A stretch of 64,000 bases of DNA from Leptolyngbya sp. PCC 6406 (lineage in GTDB: Bacteria; Cyanobacteriota; Cyanobacteriia; Phormidesmidales; Phormidesmidaceae). The position numbers were made by a program, and so were the translations under genes. Location of the stretch: assembly GCF_000332095.2 (NCBI RefSeq), contig NZ_KI913949.1, forward strand, positions 2,120,587 through 2,184,586, given 5' to 3'. The notes beneath the pieces are model-generated. The model was not told the origin of the DNA and searched no databases. It saw only the letters and a list, made by a program, of their open reading frames with translations. Of this stretch, positions 10,598 through 18,931 are shown in pieces. Numbering within the stretch: the stretch's first letter is position 1; each line of letters opens with the position of its first letter.

Positions 10598-12250
10598 TTA
10601 ATTCGTAATTTCTATGTTCAATCCATCAGGATTTGCGAAGTTCAGGATAGCGTCGTCGGTATGGCACCAGTTAATTCCCCTGTCATCATAGGAGAGGGCT
10701 GAGGGAGAGTCGCTATCGGTATAGAAAATCCCTAGCACATCATAGGTCGCACAGTCGCCTGAGGCAGTGGCGCTAATCGGAATTAAAACAACAAAATCTT
10801 CACTAGGGCCAAGATCAAACATGAGCTGATCCAGCCCCCAAGTCTCTGATTCAGAGGGACTAATATACAACTCAGACAAAAACATATCTGTGGTGTTTTG
10901 TATCGTCACTCGTTGGGTCGGTCCGTTGCCAATGGGGATTTGTTCAGTATTGCAGAGATCTACTGTTGTCACTGTTCCTTGATAAACGTCCCTCTCGGTC
11001 AGTTCCCCACTAATATCCACCCCTTCTGCAAGAAAAAATCCGGTTATATCAAAATCACATTGACTCAGATCAGGGCTGACTAAAGATAGGGGAAACTGAA
11101 AATGCTCATAGGGGCCGAGATAGACTTGTCCCAGTAAATCAATCTGGTTCTCTACTGTTGTAGGCTCACCTGCCGGAGCCACTACTAATGCCAACACCGT
11201 AGAGTTGTTGGTGTTAATGACCCGAATGAAGCTGTCTTCTGGATGGTAGAGATCGTTAGGCAGAAAGACAATAGCGTCCTCTTCTGCCTCCAGAAGGCAT
11301 AGATCCATGAGCCAGAATGTCGCCTGTCTTGTTAGTGTCCCATCGTCACCGGCAGGAGCAAACAGCCCCGCGACATCATAGATACAGTCGTCCCCAGAGT
11401 AAGGAACCGCAACGTCAACTACTTCCTGATCAGGAATGGGTTGATAAAGGAAATCTTCTCCCCAGGTATCACTGGCGCTGGGGGAGATATACAGAGACAG
11501 CAAGTTTTGGCCGGAAAAGTTAAAGACGGGTACCTGATACGCGAAGGTCTCTTCTAAGGTGTCGAGAGTTTCGGACAGAAAGACAACTGCCTCCGCTTCT
11601 GCCTCCAGAAGGCATAGATCAATCGGCGACAAGATGGCCTGACTTGTCAGTGTCCCATCACCACCGGTAGGGGCAAACAGTCCCAAGACATCATAGTTAC
11701 AGTCGTCCGCAGAGAAAGGAACCGCAACGTCAACGACTTCCTGATCAGGAATGGCCTGATAGAGGAGATTTTCTCCCCAGGTATCGCTGGTGCTGGGGGC
11801 GATATACAGAAACTGCAAATCTTGGCCGGAAAAGTTAACGACGGGCACTTGATACGCGAAGGTCTCTTCGAAGGTGGCGAGAGTTTCGGGCAAAAAGACA
11901 ACCTCCGCTTCTGCCTCCAGAAGGCATAGATCAATCGGCGGCAAGATGGCCTGACTTGTCAGTGTCCCATCACCACCGGCGGGGGCAAACAGCCCCAAGA
12001 CATCGTAGAGACAATCCTCTCCATTGCGTGGGACTGCAACGAACATCTCTTCCTGATCGGGAATAACCTGATAGAGGAGATCTTCTCCCCAGGTATCACT
12101 GGTGCTGGGGGCGATATACAGGTACTGCAAGTCTTGGCCAGAGAGGTTGGAAACTGGCACTTGGTACTCGTCGGCTTGGGCAGCAAGGGCGAATCCCCCC
12201 CACATCAACCCGCCTAAAATCGCACCCTGGACATAACCATACTGAGTCAT
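10598..12250 (-). CDS. Secreted protein made of five tandem repeats
   Basis: This is a 550-aa protein. The start at 12250 was chosen because it gives a signal peptide (MTQYGYVQGAILGGLMWGG...AAQA); the frame is open further upstream but there overlaps the TIR gene. The mature part is five copies of a module of about 95 residues. Each carries NxSGQDLxxLYIAPS and DTWGEDLLYQ, then DCxYDVLGLFA and IDLC. Two Cys per module sit near DC.YD and DLC and could form a disulfide. Modules 1-3 are nearly identical in protein and DNA; modules 4 and 5 are diverged. The pattern resembles a widespread uncharacterised domain of secreted bacterial proteins. The gene begins 76 bp after the triple-TIR gene, so the two probably form one leftward unit. 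Function is unknown; binding or adhesion at the cell surface is a guess. Confidence 0.75.
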   Translation of the reverse strand: MTQYGYVQGAILGGLMWGGFALAAQADEYQVPVSNLSGQDLQYLYIAPSTSDTWGEDLLYQVIPDQEEMFVAVPRNGEDCLYDVLGLFAPAGGDGTLTSQAILPPIDLCLLEAEAEVVFLPETLATFEETFAYQVPVVNFSGQDLQFLYIAPSTSDTWGENLLYQAIPDQEVVDVAVPFSADDCNYDVLGLFAPTGGDGTLTSQAILSPIDLCLLEAEAEAVVFLSETLDTLEETFAYQVPVFNFSGQNLLSLYISPSASDTWGEDFLYQPIPDQEVVDVAVPYSGDDCIYDVAGLFAPAGDDGTLTRQATFWLMDLCLLEAEEDAIVFLPNDLYHPEDSFIRVINTNNSTVLALVVAPAGEPTTVENQIDLLGQVYLGPYEHFQFPLSLVSPDLSQCDFDITGFFLAEGVDISGELTERDVYQGTVTTVDLCNTEQIPIGNGPTQRVTIQNTTDMFLSELYISPSESETWGLDQLMFDLGPSEDFVVLIPISATASGDCATYDVLGIFYTDSDSPSALSYDDRGINWCHTDDAILNFANPDGLNIEITN

Positions 12251-12326
12251 CGGTAAACCTAAACCTTTATAAGAATCAAGAACGTGAAGCTGATCTTCAG
12301 CCGCTTGCCACCTTGGGGGGTGTGGT

Positions 12327-15300
12327 CTAGCTGGATTCAGCCGGTTGGGAGGGGCGGATTTTGCGATCGCAACGACGGCGATCGCCCTGAGTAATCTTGG
12401 GACTCTGGCGCAAATAGGGCTGAATCCGCTCACAAGCTCGGGTCAGCACCGTATCCAGGGAATCAATCGGCCAGTGACGGGCGGTGCCATTGTCTGCAAT
12501 CGTGGTCAGGACTTGACCATCGGCACTCACCTTGGCCGAGATAATGGCGGCATTATAGAGCTGATACTGACTCAGCTCCTGCCCCTTCAGGTTCCACAGA
12601 CGCGCTGAACCATCCCGAGAAGTGGTGACCAAACGGTCTGTCCCACTGACAAAAACCACACTGGTCACATCCCCCCGATGCCCTTCCAGTTCCCCCATTT
12701 GCTTACCAGTGCTCACATCCCAGATTTTCACCGTGCGATCCTTAGAGGCCGTTGCCAACAGCGCCCCATCATGACTAAAGGCTGAGGCTTCGACCCAATC
12801 CAGATGGCCCTTGAGCACCTGCTGAAGGCGGCCATCTCTGGACCAAACCCTGACCGTCTGGTCTGTGGAACTGGTGGCCAGGGTTTGGCCATCGGGACTA
12901 AAGCTGATATGGCCCACCCAACCGGAATGCCCCTCAAAGCTGGCTAGAGCCTTACCCTGCAATGTCCAGAGCTTGGCTGTCCCATCCGCAGCACTAGTCG
13001 CCAGTTCAGCGCCATCGGGGCTAAATTGCAAGGCGGCAAGGTAATTGCCGCCATGGGCTTGAAACTGCTCCACCAACTGCCCCTGCAAATTCCACAGGGA
13101 TACCGTGCCATCCCAAGTGCCCGTAGCCAGGAGATCCGTTGTCGGGCTCAATACCGCTCCCCTCGCCCCAGCTTCAGACGGCAAGGTCGCTATTAATTGA
13201 GCCTCCCGATCCCACAGCTTGACACTGCCATCGCCGTGCTCAGCCAGAACGTAGCCCGCCTCCCCCTGCAAGCGCATATCCCGAATCTGGGCATCCTCAG
13301 GTATCTCTAGCGTCGCCCGGGTTTCCCGAGACAGATCCCAAAGCCGTACTGTGCGATCGTCAGAACCGCTGATCAGGCGCTCCTCGTCAGCACTCATCCG
13401 CACCCGATACACCTGAGCCTGGTGGCCAATCAACGCCAGGGGTTCAGACTCGTCTAAGTTCCAGGCCACCACTCGGCCATCATCGTAGGCAATGGCCATG
13501 GTCTGCCCCGTAGCCGCTAGATCAATATCCATTACATAGCCATCTAGAGGCCATTGCCGTAATTCGTTGCCCTGCAAGTCCCATTCCCGTAGCGTCTGGT
13601 CCCAGGCAGCCGTAAATACAGAGGTCGCATCGGGGCTAAAATGGGCCGCCAATACTTCTCCTTCCCCATGGGGCAATTGGCGGTAGCGTTGCTCCTGCAA
13701 ATTCCAGAGATGGGCCAGACCATCGTCGCCATAATCTGTTGCAATCACATGCTGTCCATCGGCACTGATCTGGACATCATTGATTACCCCGCCCTGGGTG
13801 GATAGGGTTTGCAGTCGCTCACCCTCCGTTGACCACAGGTAGACGTTGCCCGTTCCAGAAGCCGTCACGATGTGCTGTCCACCCGAACTCACCCCCACCC
13901 GAACCATCCACTCCCCAGGGATGTCAAAATCCGCGATTCCCTCGCCCGCCAAGGTCCAAGCCTGAACGGGCTGGCCCTCGGCTGCGGTGAGAAGAGTCTG
14001 ACCATCGGCACTGAACTGGACTTGAAAAACCTGCTCCTCAGAGATGGAAAACGTCCTGATCCGGCTCTGAGAGACCATATCCCAAACCTCGACAGTACCG
14101 TTCCGGTTCCCGATGGCCAGATAGCGTTCATCGGGGCTCAGATCGATGGCATAGATAGGAGCCTCCCCTTCGATGCGATTGTGTTCCTGAACCTCTTGCT
14201 CCGCCTGTCGCAACACCCCAGAGATCTGACTCTGCAAATATTGGGGAGGAAAAAGCCACATCTGCTGAAGTTTGAGCCCCGCCAAGGAGCTGGCCACCAG
14301 TGCCTCAAAAGGCTGGTTATCCCGCAAATTAGCTTCGGCCTCAATGGCCAAGGACTGAATCGCATGGACCTGGGTAGCCCGCCACTCAATTCCGGCCACC
14401 AATACCAGTACCGAGATCAGCGGTGCCCCAATCGCTGTCATCAAGGTCAGGCGCTGGGAAACACGGCGGGCCTTGGCTTCTTGCTCCGCCCGTTGCTCCG
14501 CCTGCCGACGGGCCTCCGCCTCCGCCTGTCGCTGGGCTTCGGCGGCCTCAGCCAACTGCTGGGCCTGCTCTAGTTCCCGTTGGCGACGGGCTTCCGCCTC
14601 CTGTTGCAGGCGATCGCTGAGGGCTTGACTGGTGGTGATAAACGCCTTTTGCAGCGCCGTGGGTGCAGGTTGCTTAGCCCGCTCCTCGGCCATCTGGAAC
14701 CAGTCTTGGGCAATCACCAACTCCGTTCCCCGCAGAAGCAGATCCTCAGTTTGTGCTTGGGCCTGCCATTCCAGCGATCGCTGGGACCACTTGGTGTGAC
14801 CATGGACATGGTCGCGATCGGTGTCCAGTGTCCGGATCAACTCACTGAAGGTACTCAGGAACTCAGTACTATCCGGTCGGAAATCAATCCAGGGCACCTG
14901 GGCCAATTCTGGGGGGAGGGCTGCCCCATCGATCCCCTGCCACAGCACCGTCACCACCCGCTTGTTGAGCTGGGCCGCATAGTCCACCTGATCCAGACAA
15001 CCGTTAGCCTGCACCGCCCGAGGCGATAGGACAACCACAATGTTGTCCGACATCTCAATGCCGCGATCAATCTCCGGCTGCAAGTCCTCACTGGCCGTAA
15101 TGCTCTCCTGATCAAACCAGGTTGTCTTGCCCTGGGTTTGCAAGGCATCATTAAGCTGACGGGCAAAGTCTACATCCGTCGGCGAGTAGGCAATAAAGAC
15201 ATCCAGCGACGTTGCCGGGGGCTGACGCAGGCTTTCTGCAATGTACGCTTCAGTCAGGGGGGTAGGCAGATTCTGGGTTCGTTGCCTCGCCACCTTCAGC

Positions 15301-16517
15301 CAAGCCTCCGCCCTGCGCAGGTCGTATCCCCGTAGCAGCAGACTGGCATTATCGTTCTGCTGTTGCCATTTCAGGGCTCGGATCAACAACCCCTTATGCT
15401 GGCTGTAGTAGTCAGCATCCTGACGCAGAATTTTGACCAACTGACTTTCATCCAGCCAATAGTCCTGCTCCTCTACATTGTCCGTCAGGTCAATGTAGTG
15501 CAGCTCCCGCAAAACCGTCGGCACCACCTCGGGATCCGTGGCCGTCACCAATACTGGAATCACCCGCTTATTGAGAGACAGGGCATAGTTAAGCTCCTGC
15601 TGGCAAAAGGAAGACTGCAAAGAGTCCGGAGACAGCAGATACACCAGATTATCCGCCTGCTCAATCCCCCGCAGAATCGCTTTCTCAAAGGCTTCACCCG
15701 TTTGGATATCGGTGGTATTGGTCCAAACGGTAAACCCCTCCCGCCTGAGGCTATTGCGGATTTTCTGCATCACCGCCTGATTCTCTTGGGCATAGGACAG
15801 GAATACCTGAGTCATCAGGCTGTTGGCCTGTTTGATGCTTTCCGTGATGTACTCACAGTGCAAATCCGTCGGAAAACAGGGGGGTTGTTCCTCCTGAAAT
15901 CGAGTCGTGAGCCAAGCTTCTCCCTGTTGCCGCTCCTCACCGATGAGCAGATAGCGCGACTGTTTTTGACCCCGCTTCCAGGTCAGCGCCCGATCTAGCA
16001 AATAGGTGTGCTGATGCACATAGGCATGATGGCGCTCCATCAACCCCAGCAAACCCGTCAGCGCCTGATCAAAATCGTCCATCCCCTCCCGGAAATAGAC
16101 CCAGTTGATCTTGCCAATCTCCGGGTGCATATTCGCAAAGCTAGAATGCAACCCCTTGGCTGTATAGGCGTCCCAATCCCCATCGCTCCCGTGGGGATTG
16201 CGCTGCTGCCAGATCTCGCGGCTAATCTGCTCAACATGGAGTAGAGGAATGATGCGCTTGCGGCATTTCAGGGCCAGCTCCACCTCCTTGCCACAGTAGG
16301 GAGAGTTCACAGAGTGGGGAGCAATAATAAAAAGGAAGTTATCCGATGCTTCGATCCCCGCATCAATTTGATTTTGAAAATCCACCCCCAGGGGAATATC
16401 TTCAAAGTCAAACCAGACCTTGCGATCGCGCTCAATTAAATGCTGATAGAGTTTAGCGGCAAAAGCCTTGCTATCGGCCCGCCCATAGGAAATGAATGCA
16501 TCCTGAAATACCGCCAT
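12327..16517 (-). CDS. Triple-TIR, transmembrane, 14-WD40 repeat protein
   Basis: This is a 1396-aa protein. TIR domains begin at about residues 5, 236 and 438. Each is followed by a recurring linker with ALxW, LLxG and AWL motifs. The αC motif carrying the NADase Glu reads C-G-K-E (C75, E78) in TIR1, C-Q-Q-E (C305, E308) in TIR2 and C-L-D-Q (C507, Q510) in TIR3, so TIR3 has lost the Glu. A charged Ala/Glu/Arg coiled coil (635-685), one membrane helix (about 690-710) and 14 WD40 repeats (about 765-1350, enough for two seven-blade propellers) follow. The tail resembles other cyanobacterial WD40 signalling proteins. No NACHT or other NTPase domain is visible. TIR domains act as NAD-consuming enzymes or scaffolds in bacterial immunity. 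The TIR part should be cytoplasmic if the propellers are outside, or the reverse. Neighbours are a SLATT-lysozyme fusion upstream and a secreted repeat protein downstream. Confidence 0.88.
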   Translation of the reverse strand: MAVFQDAFISYGRADSKAFAAKLYQHLIERDRKVWFDFEDIPLGVDFQNQIDAGIEASDNFLFIIAPHSVNSPYCGKEVELALKCRKRIIPLLHVEQISREIWQQRNPHGSDGDWDAYTAKGLHSSFANMHPEIGKINWVYFREGMDDFDQALTGLLGLMERHHAYVHQHTYLLDRALTWKRGQKQSRYLLIGEERQQGEAWLTTRFQEEQPPCFPTDLHCEYITESIKQANSLMTQVFLSYAQENQAVMQKIRNSLRREGFTVWTNTTDIQTGEAFEKAILRGIEQADNLVYLLSPDSLQSSFCQQELNYALSLNKRVIPVLVTATDPEVVPTVLRELHYIDLTDNVEEQDYWLDESQLVKILRQDADYYSQHKGLLIRALKWQQQNDNASLLLRGYDLRRAEAWLKVARQRTQNLPTPLTEAYIAESLRQPPATSLDVFIAYSPTDVDFARQLNDALQTQGKTTWFDQESITASEDLQPEIDRGIEMSDNIVVVLSPRAVQANGCLDQVDYAAQLNKRVVTVLWQGIDGAALPPELAQVPWIDFRPDSTEFLSTFSELIRTLDTDRDHVHGHTKWSQRSLEWQAQAQTEDLLLRGTELVIAQDWFQMAEERAKQPAPTALQKAFITTSQALSDRLQQEAEARRQRELEQAQQLAEAAEAQRQAEAEARRQAEQRAEQEAKARRVSQRLTLMTAIGAPLISVLVLVAGIEWRATQVHAIQSLAIEAEANLRDNQPFEALVASSLAGLKLQQMWLFPPQYLQSQISGVLRQAEQEVQEHNRIEGEAPIYAIDLSPDERYLAIGNRNGTVEVWDMVSQSRIRTFSISEEQVFQVQFSADGQTLLTAAEGQPVQAWTLAGEGIADFDIPGEWMVRVGVSSGGQHIVTASGTGNVYLWSTEGERLQTLSTQGGVINDVQISADGQHVIATDYGDDGLAHLWNLQEQRYRQLPHGEGEVLAAHFSPDATSVFTAAWDQTLREWDLQGNELRQWPLDGYVMDIDLAATGQTMAIAYDDGRVVAWNLDESEPLALIGHQAQVYRVRMSADEERLISGSDDRTVRLWDLSRETRATLEIPEDAQIRDMRLQGEAGYVLAEHGDGSVKLWDREAQLIATLPSEAGARGAVLSPTTDLLATGTWDGTVSLWNLQGQLVEQFQAHGGNYLAALQFSPDGAELATSAADGTAKLWTLQGKALASFEGHSGWVGHISFSPDGQTLATSSTDQTVRVWSRDGRLQQVLKGHLDWVEASAFSHDGALLATASKDRTVKIWDVSTGKQMGELEGHRGDVTSVVFVSGTDRLVTTSRDGSARLWNLKGQELSQYQLYNAAIISAKVSADGQVLTTIADNGTARHWPIDSLDTVLTRACERIQPYLRQSPKITQGDRRRCDRKIRPSQPAESS

Positions 16518-16555
16518 GACACCCCTACTTGGTTAACTGACAAAACATCAGTATC

Positions 16556-16659
16556 TGTAGGATGCGTATAGCCTACGGCATAGCTACGCTAAAGCGTCAG
16601 CGAACGCATCAAATCCTCGTGGAATGATGCGTTACGGCTCCGCCTAACAGCATCCTACA
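16556..16659. repeat. 104-bp GTAGGATGCG inverted-repeat element
   Basis: Ends TGTAGGATG and CATCCTACA are exact inverted repeats. The inside has further GATGCGT/ACGCATC dyads and GCGTTACG-type motifs. It fills most of the gap between the small coiled-coil gene and the TIR gene. Elements of this look are dispersed in cyanobacterial genomes, and a partial relative is near 34315-34350. It could form a strong hairpin in the transcript. Confidence 0.65.
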
Positions 16660-16677
16660 ACCTGGTACACCATTCCC

Positions 16678-16959
16678 TTACTGGCTAAAGGAATTGCTAT
16701 TGGTGGGGGCTGCCATGCCCACGGTGGCAAGGCGCTGAATCAACAAATGCTGCTGCTCAATAATGGATGTGTGTTGCTGGGATAGGGCAATCATGGAGGT
16801 AATTGAATCCTGTTGTCGTTCGGCAAAGAGACGCAGTTCTCTGACCTCTGACCTCAGCGCCGTCAATTCTTGAACGAGGGGGTCAGGGGTAGGCGCGAGT
16901 TGGGGCTCGGGGGCCACGTCTATCGTTGATTCAATGCCAGTGTCAATTGCGGTTTCCAT
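16678..16959 (-). CDS. Small coiled-coil protein
   Basis: This is a 93-aa acidic protein. Residues about 25-80 form a coiled coil (VQELTALRSEVRELRLFAE and a following Gln/His-rich segment). There are no membrane helices. Its ATG shares a base with the TGA of the SLATT-lysozyme gene (TGATG junction), so the two are translationally coupled and very likely partners. I do not recognise a family. By analogy with small genes downstream of lysis genes it could modulate the large protein, but this is inference only. Confidence 0.65.
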   Translation of the reverse strand: METAIDTGIESTIDVAPEPQLAPTPDPLVQELTALRSEVRELRLFAERQQDSITSMIALSQQHTSIIEQQHLLIQRLATVGMAAPTNSNSFSQ

Positions 16960-18527
16960 CAGACCATCCTCTTTTTTGCACGCTGAACATACTTGTCAAA
17001 CACATCCCAGCCGTGATAACCGCCATTGACGAGCTTGCGGACCCGTCGCCAGTCGCCAGAACGGGCCGCTGTGGACACCCCCCGCTCTTTGAAATAGCAG
17101 GCTAAAACCAAGGCAGAAACGTTGGGATCCATGGCTAAATCGGGGTTGTTTTCCAAATCCACCCCCAACTTTTGGCCATAGGTTTTGTAATTGGCCCGAC
17201 CGGTTAATTGCACATAGCCCCGCCCATGGTATTTCACCCCGTCGCCGGGATGAACATTGCCCAGATCCTTGCGGCCTTCGTAGCGCTTCCAGTAACTTGC
17301 GCCCCCCCATTCATGGACTGGCTTGAAGCCGCCGGTTTCCACTCGCACGGTGGCCAATAAGCCCACCAGGGTTTGCTTGTCTAGAATGTCGTACTTGTGC
17401 ATGGCGGCCAGAATACCCGGTAGGTAGGTCTGGCAATCCCCTAGGGGACATTCCAGGATGTGGGCTACGTCCTCCGGTTGAATCAGTTGGGGAACGGGAC
17501 CAGAGGGCGCAGTACTGGCTCCATTACCCACGGAGGGGCTGCTGCTTTTTGTGGCGGTGATTTGGCTGGCCAAAATGGCCTTGAGAGCCTCAATATCAAC
17601 GGTTTCTTCCCAGTCCAAGGCTGCTGCCCCCAGGGGGGGCAAATCTGCCGCTGCTACCGCTAGGGTGGCGGTAGCAGTTGCAGGTGGGGCGGATTGGACT
17701 AGGGCGGTAGTGGCCTCCTGACCATCAGCATGGGTGGTGACTGGGAAACTGGTTTCCCCCTCAGGGGGGAACGAAGTTCCGCCATTTGCTGAGACCAGGG
17801 CTTGGACTGGAGTTGCGGCCAGTGTCTGGGCCACTACCGCCTCTGTGGCCATCTCTGCCGCCGCCTGCTGTTTGGCGGCGGATTCTTCGGCCAGCCGCTT
17901 TTCAATGGCCTCTAATCGCTGCGCCCGCAACTCCAGCTCTTGATTGAGGCGAGATAGCGCTTTCTCGGTATTCTCAACCGCTGTTTGGGCGTCCTTTTTG
18001 CCATCGTCCTGCTTCTTCTCTAACCGCTCTACAAAGCTTTCCAGATCCTGTTGAATAAAGTATTCCACCCGCTCCGCAAAAATTGGGTAGGCATCTTCAG
18101 CGGTGGGATATTCACGGTAGGGACCGGTGAGCTGCATGTACTGCCATCCCTCAATCTTGAGCGCTTCAGCCGTATTACGATAGTGGCGATACTTTTCCCC
18201 GTGACTAAAAAATTCCTCCACCGCTGCCGAAATCGCGACCGTCTGACTGACTCCGAAGGCGACCCAAGTGATGGCTTCTTGGAACCTGGGACGATCGGGA
18301 CTGCGGAATCCTACCATGGCAGGGACTAAGACTCCCCCAATAATGGTCACCATCCGTAGAAAGTAGTGCTGATTGCGCTCCTTTGTAGCTCGACCTTCGA
18401 GCCATAGAACCTGGTCTAGCCAGCGATTCTTAATGAAATCCTTGTGCAACTCCGACAATGTCAACCGATCGACAAGTCCCCCCAAGGTTTGCTTGAGGTA
18501 TTGCGCATAGCTATTCTTCTTTGCCAT
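16959..18527 (-). CDS. SLATT (DUF4231) membrane domain fused to a GH19 lysozyme/chitinase domain
   Basis: This is a 522-aa fusion. Residues about 30-160 match the DUF4231/SLATT pattern: RWLDQVLWLEG, RNQHYFLRM, helix 1 (58-74), helix 2 (86-104), then EKYRHYRNTAEALKIEGWQY. A coiled coil (155-225) and an Ala/Thr/Pro-rich linker (225-350) lead to a GH19 domain (365-522) with ATVRVETGGF (candidate catalytic Glu397), KYHGRGYVQLTGRANY and NGGYHGWD. GH19 phage-type enzymes cleave peptidoglycan. SLATT domains are predicted pore-formers linked to bacterial conflict systems. There is no signal peptide, and two helices leave the lysozyme domain on the same side as the N-terminus. ATG 18527 was chosen over an upstream TTG at 18584. 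It is coupled to the 93-aa gene and sits upstream of the triple-TIR gene. The fusion resembles a holin-endolysin in one chain, which is inference. Confidence 0.82.
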   Translation of the reverse strand: MAKKNSYAQYLKQTLGGLVDRLTLSELHKDFIKNRWLDQVLWLEGRATKERNQHYFLRMVTIIGGVLVPAMVGFRSPDRPRFQEAITWVAFGVSQTVAISAAVEEFFSHGEKYRHYRNTAEALKIEGWQYMQLTGPYREYPTAEDAYPIFAERVEYFIQQDLESFVERLEKKQDDGKKDAQTAVENTEKALSRLNQELELRAQRLEAIEKRLAEESAAKQQAAAEMATEAVVAQTLAATPVQALVSANGGTSFPPEGETSFPVTTHADGQEATTALVQSAPPATATATLAVAAADLPPLGAAALDWEETVDIEALKAILASQITATKSSSPSVGNGASTAPSGPVPQLIQPEDVAHILECPLGDCQTYLPGILAAMHKYDILDKQTLVGLLATVRVETGGFKPVHEWGGASYWKRYEGRKDLGNVHPGDGVKYHGRGYVQLTGRANYKTYGQKLGVDLENNPDLAMDPNVSALVLACYFKERGVSTAARSGDWRRVRKLVNGGYHGWDVFDKYVQRAKKRMV

Positions 18528-18931
18528 CTGAAACTGCCTGTCACCCTGATTGTGTGGTAGCAAAAACTCTTGTGTGCGCTCCAACTTGAAACCTGTGAGC
18601 TTTCCCTGACAGGATTCCTAGACTTGCACCGAACACAAGGTTTAAATGCCTTAAAAATGGCATGGTTTCTGCATTAAAAAGCGCCGGCACCTAAGGCAAC
18701 CAGCTCCTTAAGCATGTATATTTATTTTGAACTCATATCAGTGTATATCCTTAAAGATGGTATTTTGGCAATAGGGGGAAGCATAAATTTTTTGTTGGAT
18801 TGTCGTTGCCTCCAAAGCTTGTTTTCTTGATTTGAGAAGGCAACGATTTTAATTGCTTTGGCCAAAATGGCCAAAGCAATGGTTTTGTTTAATCCCGCCT
18901 GATTCAGTTTCTTCTTGCCGGACTTAATCCT
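18528..18931. other. Divergent intergenic region with two nested-style hairpins
   Basis: This roughly 400-bp AT-rich region separates two divergently transcribed muralytic genes and must carry both promoters. Two inverted repeats stand out. CGTTGCCT (18804-18811) pairs with AGGCAACG (18838-18845). A perfect 13-bp stem ATTGCTTTGGCCA (18852-18864) / TGGCCAAAGCAAT (18868-18880) has a 3-nt loop and is followed by GGTTTTGTTT. The pair could be operators, an attenuator before the rightward gene, or the end of a small RNA. Confidence 0.5.

What the first reader, a model, noticed from the sequence alone, without database searches (positions are those of the whole stretch)
12327..16517. Triple-TIR protein with an altered third TIR active site and 14 WD40 repeats
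Three TIR domains sit in one protein, each with its own copy of a linker motif. TIR1 and TIR2 keep the Cys-x-x-Glu motif (C75/E78, C305/E308), but TIR3 has C507/Q510. A membrane helix separates them from two probable seven-blade propellers. This suggests two catalytic TIRs and one structural TIR, or self-assembly within a single chain, with the propellers as sensor.
Basis: partly seen in the sequence, partly recalled or inferred. Interest (0 to 1): 0.7.

Follow-up and report, generated by a model that had tools for sequence, protein, structure and literature searches.

The report
Three-TIR membrane sensor beside SLATT gene
A cyanobacterial protein with three TIR domains (the immune enzyme fold that destroys NAD) and two propeller domains belongs to a widespread family in which the first TIR is always kept intact and the last often decays, and the wider TIR-propeller family sits unusually often next to genes for predicted nucleotide sensors and membrane-pore proteins, suggesting a self-destruct or defence circuit.

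Summary
In detail: one 1,396-aa ORF (12327-16517, minus strand) with three TIR domains, each followed by its own helical linker repeat, one membrane helix and 14 WD40 blades; C75/E78, C305/E308, C507/Q510 are as stated. In 97 relatives the TIR1 glutamate is never lost; TIR3 has it in 83 and lost it about 10 separate times, usually to Gln, always with the WxxxE aromatic also missing. So TIR3's change is a real, recurrent, derived decay, not a property of the architecture. TIR2 keeps Glu but lacks, nearly family-wide, the Asp that AbTir and TcpC need, so 'two catalytic TIRs' is doubtful; TIR1 is the only canonical one here. The same array is fused to WD40 propellers or a CHASE2 sensor. Beyond the finding: the upstream gene is a SLATT (2TM) protein fused to a GH19 lysin; both SLATT genes of this genome lie beside its two TIR-linker-WD40 genes, and in 59 related genomes SLATT and LSDAT (TRPM-type SLOG) genes lie next to TIR-linker genes far above chance. 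Best reading: a membrane-anchored TIR NADase wired to an ADP-ribose-type sensor/pore effector. Nothing was tested biochemically.

The parts
12327..16517 (-). whole gene: TIR1-K1-TIR2-K2-TIR3-K3-coiled coil/TM-14 WD40 blades, 1396 aa
16218..16508 (-). TIR1 (aa 4-100): S10, D37, Y74, C75, E78; canonical NADase residues, invariant or nearly so in 97 relatives
15825..16028 (-). linker repeat K1 (aa 164-231), three helices
15534..15818 (-). TIR2 (aa 234-328): F304, C305, E308 kept, but N267 in place of the AbTir D167 Asp
15219..15419 (-). linker repeat K2 (aa 367-433)
14928..15206 (-). TIR3 (aa 438-530): A443, G506, Q510 replace Ser, aromatic, Glu; R453 and D469 kept
14988..14990 (-). codon of Q510 (CAG)
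14616..14819 (-). linker repeat K3 (aa 567-634)
14322..14609 (-). long helix aa 637-732 holding the single membrane segment (aa 692-710 = 14388-14444); N-flank rich in K/R
12468..14186 (-). two WD40 propellers (aa 778-1350), about 14 blades
16959..18584 (-). upstream gene, same strand: SLATT/DUF4231 2TM domain fused to a GH19 (endolysin/chitinase-like) domain; proposed effector partner
   Evidence: SLATT_1 105 bits, cut-off 41; adjacency
16678..16959 (-). 93-aa ORF whose ATG overlaps the SLATT-GH19 stop (TGATG); no relatives found
16530..16665 (-). dispersed repeat (22 places in the genome) between the 93-aa ORF and the TIR gene

Best explanation
A single-pass membrane receptor. The TIR array lies in the cytoplasm and the two propellers, probably on the far side of the membrane, are the sensor. 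On sensing, the array becomes an active NADase; TIR1 supplies the indispensable active site, TIR2 is a divergent helper and TIR3, canonical in most relatives, has here decayed to a structural or neighbour-surface role. The NAD-derived product (ADP-ribose or a cyclic isomer) is the signal, and/or NAD loss is the injury. Its likely receiver is the SLATT 2TM protein, which in many relatives is encoded with an LSDAT (TRPM-type SLOG) sensor; the outcome would be membrane permeabilisation and, through the fused GH19 domain, wall damage: an abortive defence or programmed-death circuit. Shown: anatomy, conservation, recurrent TIR3 decay, sensor exchange, adjacency of TIR-linker genes with SLATT and LSDAT genes. 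Inferred: catalysis, signal identity, topology, pore formation, trigger.
For: TIR1 Glu kept in 97 of 97, AbTir S140 and D167 equivalents in 97 of 97, aromatic in 95. TIR3 Glu lost in 14 of 97, 9-11 changes on three trees; the aromatic is absent in all 14 (Fisher 3e-11, rows not independent); TIR3 alone drifts when its Glu is gone (match to consensus 0.65 v 0.80; TIR1 0.80 v 0.78). TIR folds match SARM1, SPARTA and AbTir TIRs at Z 17-20. Only two SLATT genes in this genome, each next to one of its two TIR-linker-WD40 genes. In 59 related genomes 12 of 52 SLATT and 16 of 34 LSDAT genes lie within 5 kb of a TIR-linker gene against about 0.4 and 0.25 expected by uniform placement; no listed caspase gene lies within 41 kb of one on a shared contig. 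LSDAT-SLATT-TIR-linker-WD40 occurs as a same-strand row (L124, L125). [quoted passage not shown] LSDAT is the class of SLOG in TRPM channels whose region binds ADP-ribose and opens TRPM2 (PMC13143021).
Against: No activity, signal or phenotype is shown. Many triple-TIR genes have no SLATT or LSDAT within reach: only 17 of 79 loci had either, and in the 59-genome set much of the adjacency comes from TIR-linker proteins with one TIR. The window has no LSDAT gene (the genome's one is about 3 Mb away). A dispersed repeat and 160 bp separate the 93-aa ORF from the TIR gene, so co-transcription is unproven. The genomes are related, so the Poisson values overstate the evidence. A two-TM SLATT would leave its GH19 domain on the same side as its N-terminus, so how it would reach the wall is open. 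The TIR aromatic is Tyr or Phe, not Trp, and TcpC does not need its Trp.
Confidence: 0.5

Rival explanations
1. The TIR array is a scaffold only, as in Toll-like receptor and MyD88 signalling: TIRs assemble and recruit a partner, without NAD cleavage.
For: TIR3 and sometimes TIR2 lose the Glu without loss of the fold; structural matches include MyD88 and MAL TIR filaments.
Against: TIR1 keeps Ser, Asp, aromatic and Glu in essentially all of 97 relatives, at 47-67% overall identity to the window, the signature of a kept active site.
Confidence: 0.15
2. The NADase itself kills or starves the cell by NAD depletion, and the SLATT neighbour is an independent defence gene that only shares a variable region.
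For: Most triple-TIR loci lack SLATT or LSDAT nearby, and the SLATT orientation varies (L018, L060, L086).
Against: Adjacency is far above chance and repeated in several genera, with both SLATT genes of this genome involved; caspase genes show no such clustering.
Confidence: 0.25
3. A signalling protein of normal physiology (envelope or osmotic stress, differentiation) rather than defence; propeller and CHASE2 are ordinary envelope sensors.
For: CHASE2 is an extracytoplasmic sensor domain of signal-transduction proteins (established knowledge); sensor exchange; no curated anti-phage model reaches its cut-off.
Against: TIR, SLOG and SLATT are predicted conflict-system parts (PMC7159879, PMC9503650).
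Confidence: 0.2
4. Q510 is a neutral one-off or an error and TIR3 is otherwise an active enzyme.
For: It is one transversion from a Glu codon (CAG).
Against: Ser, aromatic and Glu are all lost, TIR3 matches the family consensus less (0.63), and the same change recurs about 6-8 times in the family.
Confidence: 0.04

Closest known systems
SARM1 / AbTir-type TIR NADases
   Same: TIR fold (Z 17-20); Ser, Asp, aromatic and Glu of the active site conserved in TIR1
   Different: three or five covalently linked TIRs with their own linker repeats; Tyr in place of Trp in WxxxE; membrane anchored; no SAM or ARM domains
Thoeris (ThsB TIR + ThsA SLOG effector)
   Same: TIR coded near a SLOG-fold nucleotide sensor in many relatives; logic of TIR product to SLOG receiver
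   Different: SLOG is of the LSDAT class; effector is SLATT (2TM); ThsA was not searched for by model; below the cut-off of the Thoeris type III model (102.6 bits v 220)
TIR-SLATT pairs of Firmicute phages and SLATT of GAP1-N systems (PMC9503650, PMC7159879)
   Same: TIR and 2TM SLATT coded together
   Different: here chromosomal in cyanobacteria, TIR fused to linker-TM-WD40 or CHASE2, SLATT often fused to a cell-wall lysin (GH19, phage lysozyme)
Apaf-1 / STAND-WD40 receptors
   Same: two WD40 propellers as C-terminal sensor (Apaf-1 among the top fold matches)
   Different: no NTPase module between effector and propellers

Membership tests
TIR domain fold | match to Pfam TIR/TIR_2 above curated cut-off, and the fold | tested here: met
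   TIR_2 255.6 bits v 28, three stretches; TIR structures Z up to 20
[quoted passage not shown]
   met for TIR1 (Y74xxxE78) and TIR2 (F304xxxE308) with an aromatic other than Trp; not met for TIR3 (G506xxxQ510)
catalytic TIR NADase | other residues needed in AbTir (S140, R151, D167) | tested here: inconclusive
   TIR1 S10, D37 but no Arg; TIR2 S241, N267, no Arg; TIR3 A443, D469, R453 (PMC11374754)
catalytic TIR NADase | NAD cleavage by the purified protein | not testable with these tools
   needs an assay
Thoeris | TIR subunit scoring above the curated model | tested here: not met
   ThcB4 102.6 bits v cut-off 220
Thoeris | ThsA effector (SIR2-SLOG or TM-SLOG) next to it | not tested
   no ThsA model was run over the neighbours; LSDAT is absent from the window
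SLATT-associated nucleotide-signal conflict system | SLATT protein above curated cut-off coded next to a nucleotide-processing enzyme | tested here: met
   SLATT_1 105.3 bits v 41, gene 16959-18584 directly upstream; recurrent
SLATT-associated nucleotide-signal conflict system | SLOG or SMODS partner at the locus | tested here: not met
   no LSDAT in the window (other SLOG classes and SMODS were not searched for); LSDAT lies next to SLATT and TIR in other genomes
WD40 double propeller | 14 four-stranded blades | tested here: met
   model with 54 listed strands, pLDDT 87; 2ymu best match

The most novel reading that the evidence does not exclude
A bacterial counterpart of the NAD to ADP-ribose to TRPM2 route: a receptor with propellers outside the membrane carries a pre-linked TIR filament segment in one chain, in which TIR1 is the dedicated catalyst and later TIRs only complete its active site, and its product opens an LSDAT/SLATT pore fused to a cell-wall lysin.
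Probability: 0.25. Interest if true: 0.8.

Novelty: new variant of a known kind. Interest (0 to 1): 0.55.

Why it matters
TIR enzymes work only when several TIRs meet. A protein with three (in some relatives five) TIRs in one chain, whose first unit never loses its catalytic residues and whose last unit often does, is a natural experiment on which TIR in an assembly does the chemistry. If the recurring link to LSDAT and SLATT genes reflects function, it would give cyanobacteria a complete route from sensor to enzyme to nucleotide sensor to pore, resembling ADP-ribose gating of TRPM2 channels in animals, and would give a testable role to SLATT proteins, whose pore function is so far a prediction in the papers read here.

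Tried and rejected
Rejected: that TIR3's catalytic Glu lies elsewhere (alignment with AbTir puts Q510 on E208). Rejected: that altered TIR3 is typical of the architecture. Considered: that Glu loss goes with sensor type; Gln occurs in both WD40 and CHASE2 forms, not pursued. The 2015 survey that named SLOG/SLATT/LSDAT (NAR gkv1267) is not held, so whether TIR-LSDAT-SLATT neighbourhoods in cyanobacteria were already listed there is unknown. No held paper joins TIR domain, WD40, cyanobacteria and NADase. The conserved flanking genes near Nostocales CHASE2 forms (DUF928 and others) look like shared synteny and were not followed. Relatives of the 93-aa ORF: none. Model coordinates are not given by the tool, so contacts between the three TIRs could not be measured; absence of multi-TIR matches in the fold search says nothing on this.
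Full report
What is there. The ORF 12327-16517 on the minus strand codes for 1,396 residues and all named residues are right. Pfam gives three TIR_2 stretches and WD40. Models of the two halves are confident: residues 1-640, pLDDT 91.4 and pTM 0.84, three TIR folds each followed by a three-helix linker; residues 636-1396, pLDDT 87.1, one 96-residue helix holding the membrane segment and about 14 blades. The TIRs match SARM1, SPARTA and AbTir TIR structures at Z 17-20; the propeller half matches 2ymu and Apaf-1. The three linkers are homologous to each other.

Family. One scan of bacterial genomes found 190 relatives, of which 79 loci were kept, all cyanobacterial by record title. Of the ORFs in hand 113 have exactly the order T1-K1-T2-K2-T3-K3, each position recognisable by its own profile, and a few have five TIRs, T1-K1-T2-K3-T1-K1-T2-K2-T3-K3. 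The C-terminal sensor is either WD40 or, in the forms of about 1,050 aa scanned, CHASE2, with five changes of sensor on the tree; two Okeania proteins are 87% identical over the TIR part but have unrelated C-terminal halves (Pfam for L057). The TIR half of the window protein is 47-67% identical to relatives, the WD40 half 26-32%.

Active sites. The alignments put Q510 on the catalytic Glu of AbTir (E208) and E78 and E308 on that of SARM1 and of other bacterial TIRs. The motif is better read as aromatic-x-x-x-Glu (WxxxE; PMC11374754 reports that W204A and the E208 mutant lose AbTir activity, while the equivalent Trp is not needed in TcpC). In 97 relatives TIR1 has Glu 97 times and an aromatic 95 times; TIR2 has Glu 92 times; TIR3 has Glu 83 times, Gln 10, Ala 2, Leu 1, Ser 1. 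On trees built without the motif columns the TIR3 state changes 9-11 times, Gln about 6-8 times; TIR1 never changes. All 14 TIR3s without Glu also lack the aromatic, and TIR3, but not TIR1 or TIR2, drifts from the consensus in those proteins. Residues other than Glu change the picture for TIR2: the Asp that AbTir (D167) and TcpC (D203) need is invariant in TIR1 and nearly so in TIR3, but is Asn in 68 and Ser in 15 TIR2s. So in this protein TIR1 is canonical, TIR2 is divergent as in nearly the whole family, and TIR3 is decayed. Counts come from related sequences and a quick tree; the direction from Glu to other residues is inferred from the spread of Glu, not from a rooted tree.

Topology. K+R in the 15 residues before the membrane helix averages 4.7 against 2.6 after it, and is higher on the TIR side in 67 of 78 relatives. 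By the positive-inside rule the TIRs are cytoplasmic and the propellers outside. The CHASE2 forms, whose sensor is normally extracytoplasmic, fit this. It is a prediction.

Neighbours. The gene directly upstream on the same strand (16959-18584) is a SLATT/DUF4231 2TM domain fused to a GH19 domain. The genome has just two DUF4231 genes; the other lies 231 bp upstream of the genome's only other TIR-linker-WD40 gene, a single-TIR form. Among 79 triple-TIR loci 17 hold a SLATT or LSDAT gene, SLATT being fused to GH19, phage lysozyme or a C39 peptidase plus GH19 in several, and in one Moorena locus a SLATT-GH19 gene lies between two triple-TIR genes. In 59 related genomes, 12 of 52 SLATT and 16 of 34 LSDAT genes lie within 5 kb of a TIR-linker gene; uniform placement predicts 0.37 and 0.25 (the TIR list was cut by the tool, which can only lower the observed counts and the expectation together). 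Caspase genes, many more in number, show none within 41 kb on shared contigs, as far as they were listed. Sampled rows include LSDAT-SLATT-TIR-K-WD40 on one strand (L124, L125), LSDAT-TIR-K-WD40 (L126) and SLATT-GH19 with LSDAT beside a five-TIR gene (L128). The related genomes are not independent draws, so the exact Poisson values should not be taken literally.

Mechanism. [quoted passage not shown] LSDAT is the SLOG class found in TRPM channels, where that region binds ADP-ribose and opens TRPM2 (PMC13143021). The simplest circuit is sensor, TIR NADase, NAD-derived signal, SLATT (with or without LSDAT), membrane and wall damage. Every step after the sequence evidence is inferred. The window lacks LSDAT, and a dispersed repeat lies between the 93-aa ORF and the TIR gene, so the link is weaker here than in the single-TIR gene rows.

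Place among known things. It works like, but as tested is not a member of, Thoeris (below the curated model). TIR domains, WD40 receptors and SLATT systems are each known; the linked TIR array with swappable sensors and its tie to LSDAT/SLATT is a variant that I did not find described in the papers held, though the key 2015 survey could not be read.

Noticed in passing
10598-12433 (-): Protein with several copies of a repeat around 'YIAPSxSDTWGxxxL' and a signal-peptide-like start near residue 61; no Pfam family; the listed GTG start overlaps the TIR gene, so an inner ATG is likelier.
   Followed up: partly
16530-16665 (-): Dispersed repeat, 22 places in the genome at 77-100% identity, between the 93-aa ORF and the TIR gene.
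   Followed up: partly
L123 3945-8096 (own genome): SLATT gene followed 231 bp later by a single-TIR-linker-WD40 gene with an extra N-terminal region resembling a winged helix; its TIR has Glu but Val in place of the aromatic.
   Followed up: partly
L015 721-9847 and L018 4526-13062: Tandem triple-TIR-WD40 genes in which one copy keeps Glu in TIR3 and the neighbour has Gln.
   Followed up: partly
L104 199-4779, L105 157-4689: Five-TIR proteins with tails of CHASE2 length; the first and third TIR (T1 type) keep Glu while the fourth has Val or Gln.
   Followed up: partly
L027 8977-11305: Closest relative by identity (72%, Microseira) has its triple-TIR frame broken near residue 549, in a locus that also has LSDAT and SLATT genes.
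   Followed up: no
L043, L050, L055, L077: SLATT genes (in L043 fused to a phage-lysozyme domain) followed in Nostocales by a conserved small ORF of about 105-119 aa unlike the window's 93-aa ORF.
   Followed up: no
L046 and L057: Two Okeania proteins with 87% identical triple-TIR parts but WD40 in one and CHASE2 in the other.
   Followed up: yes
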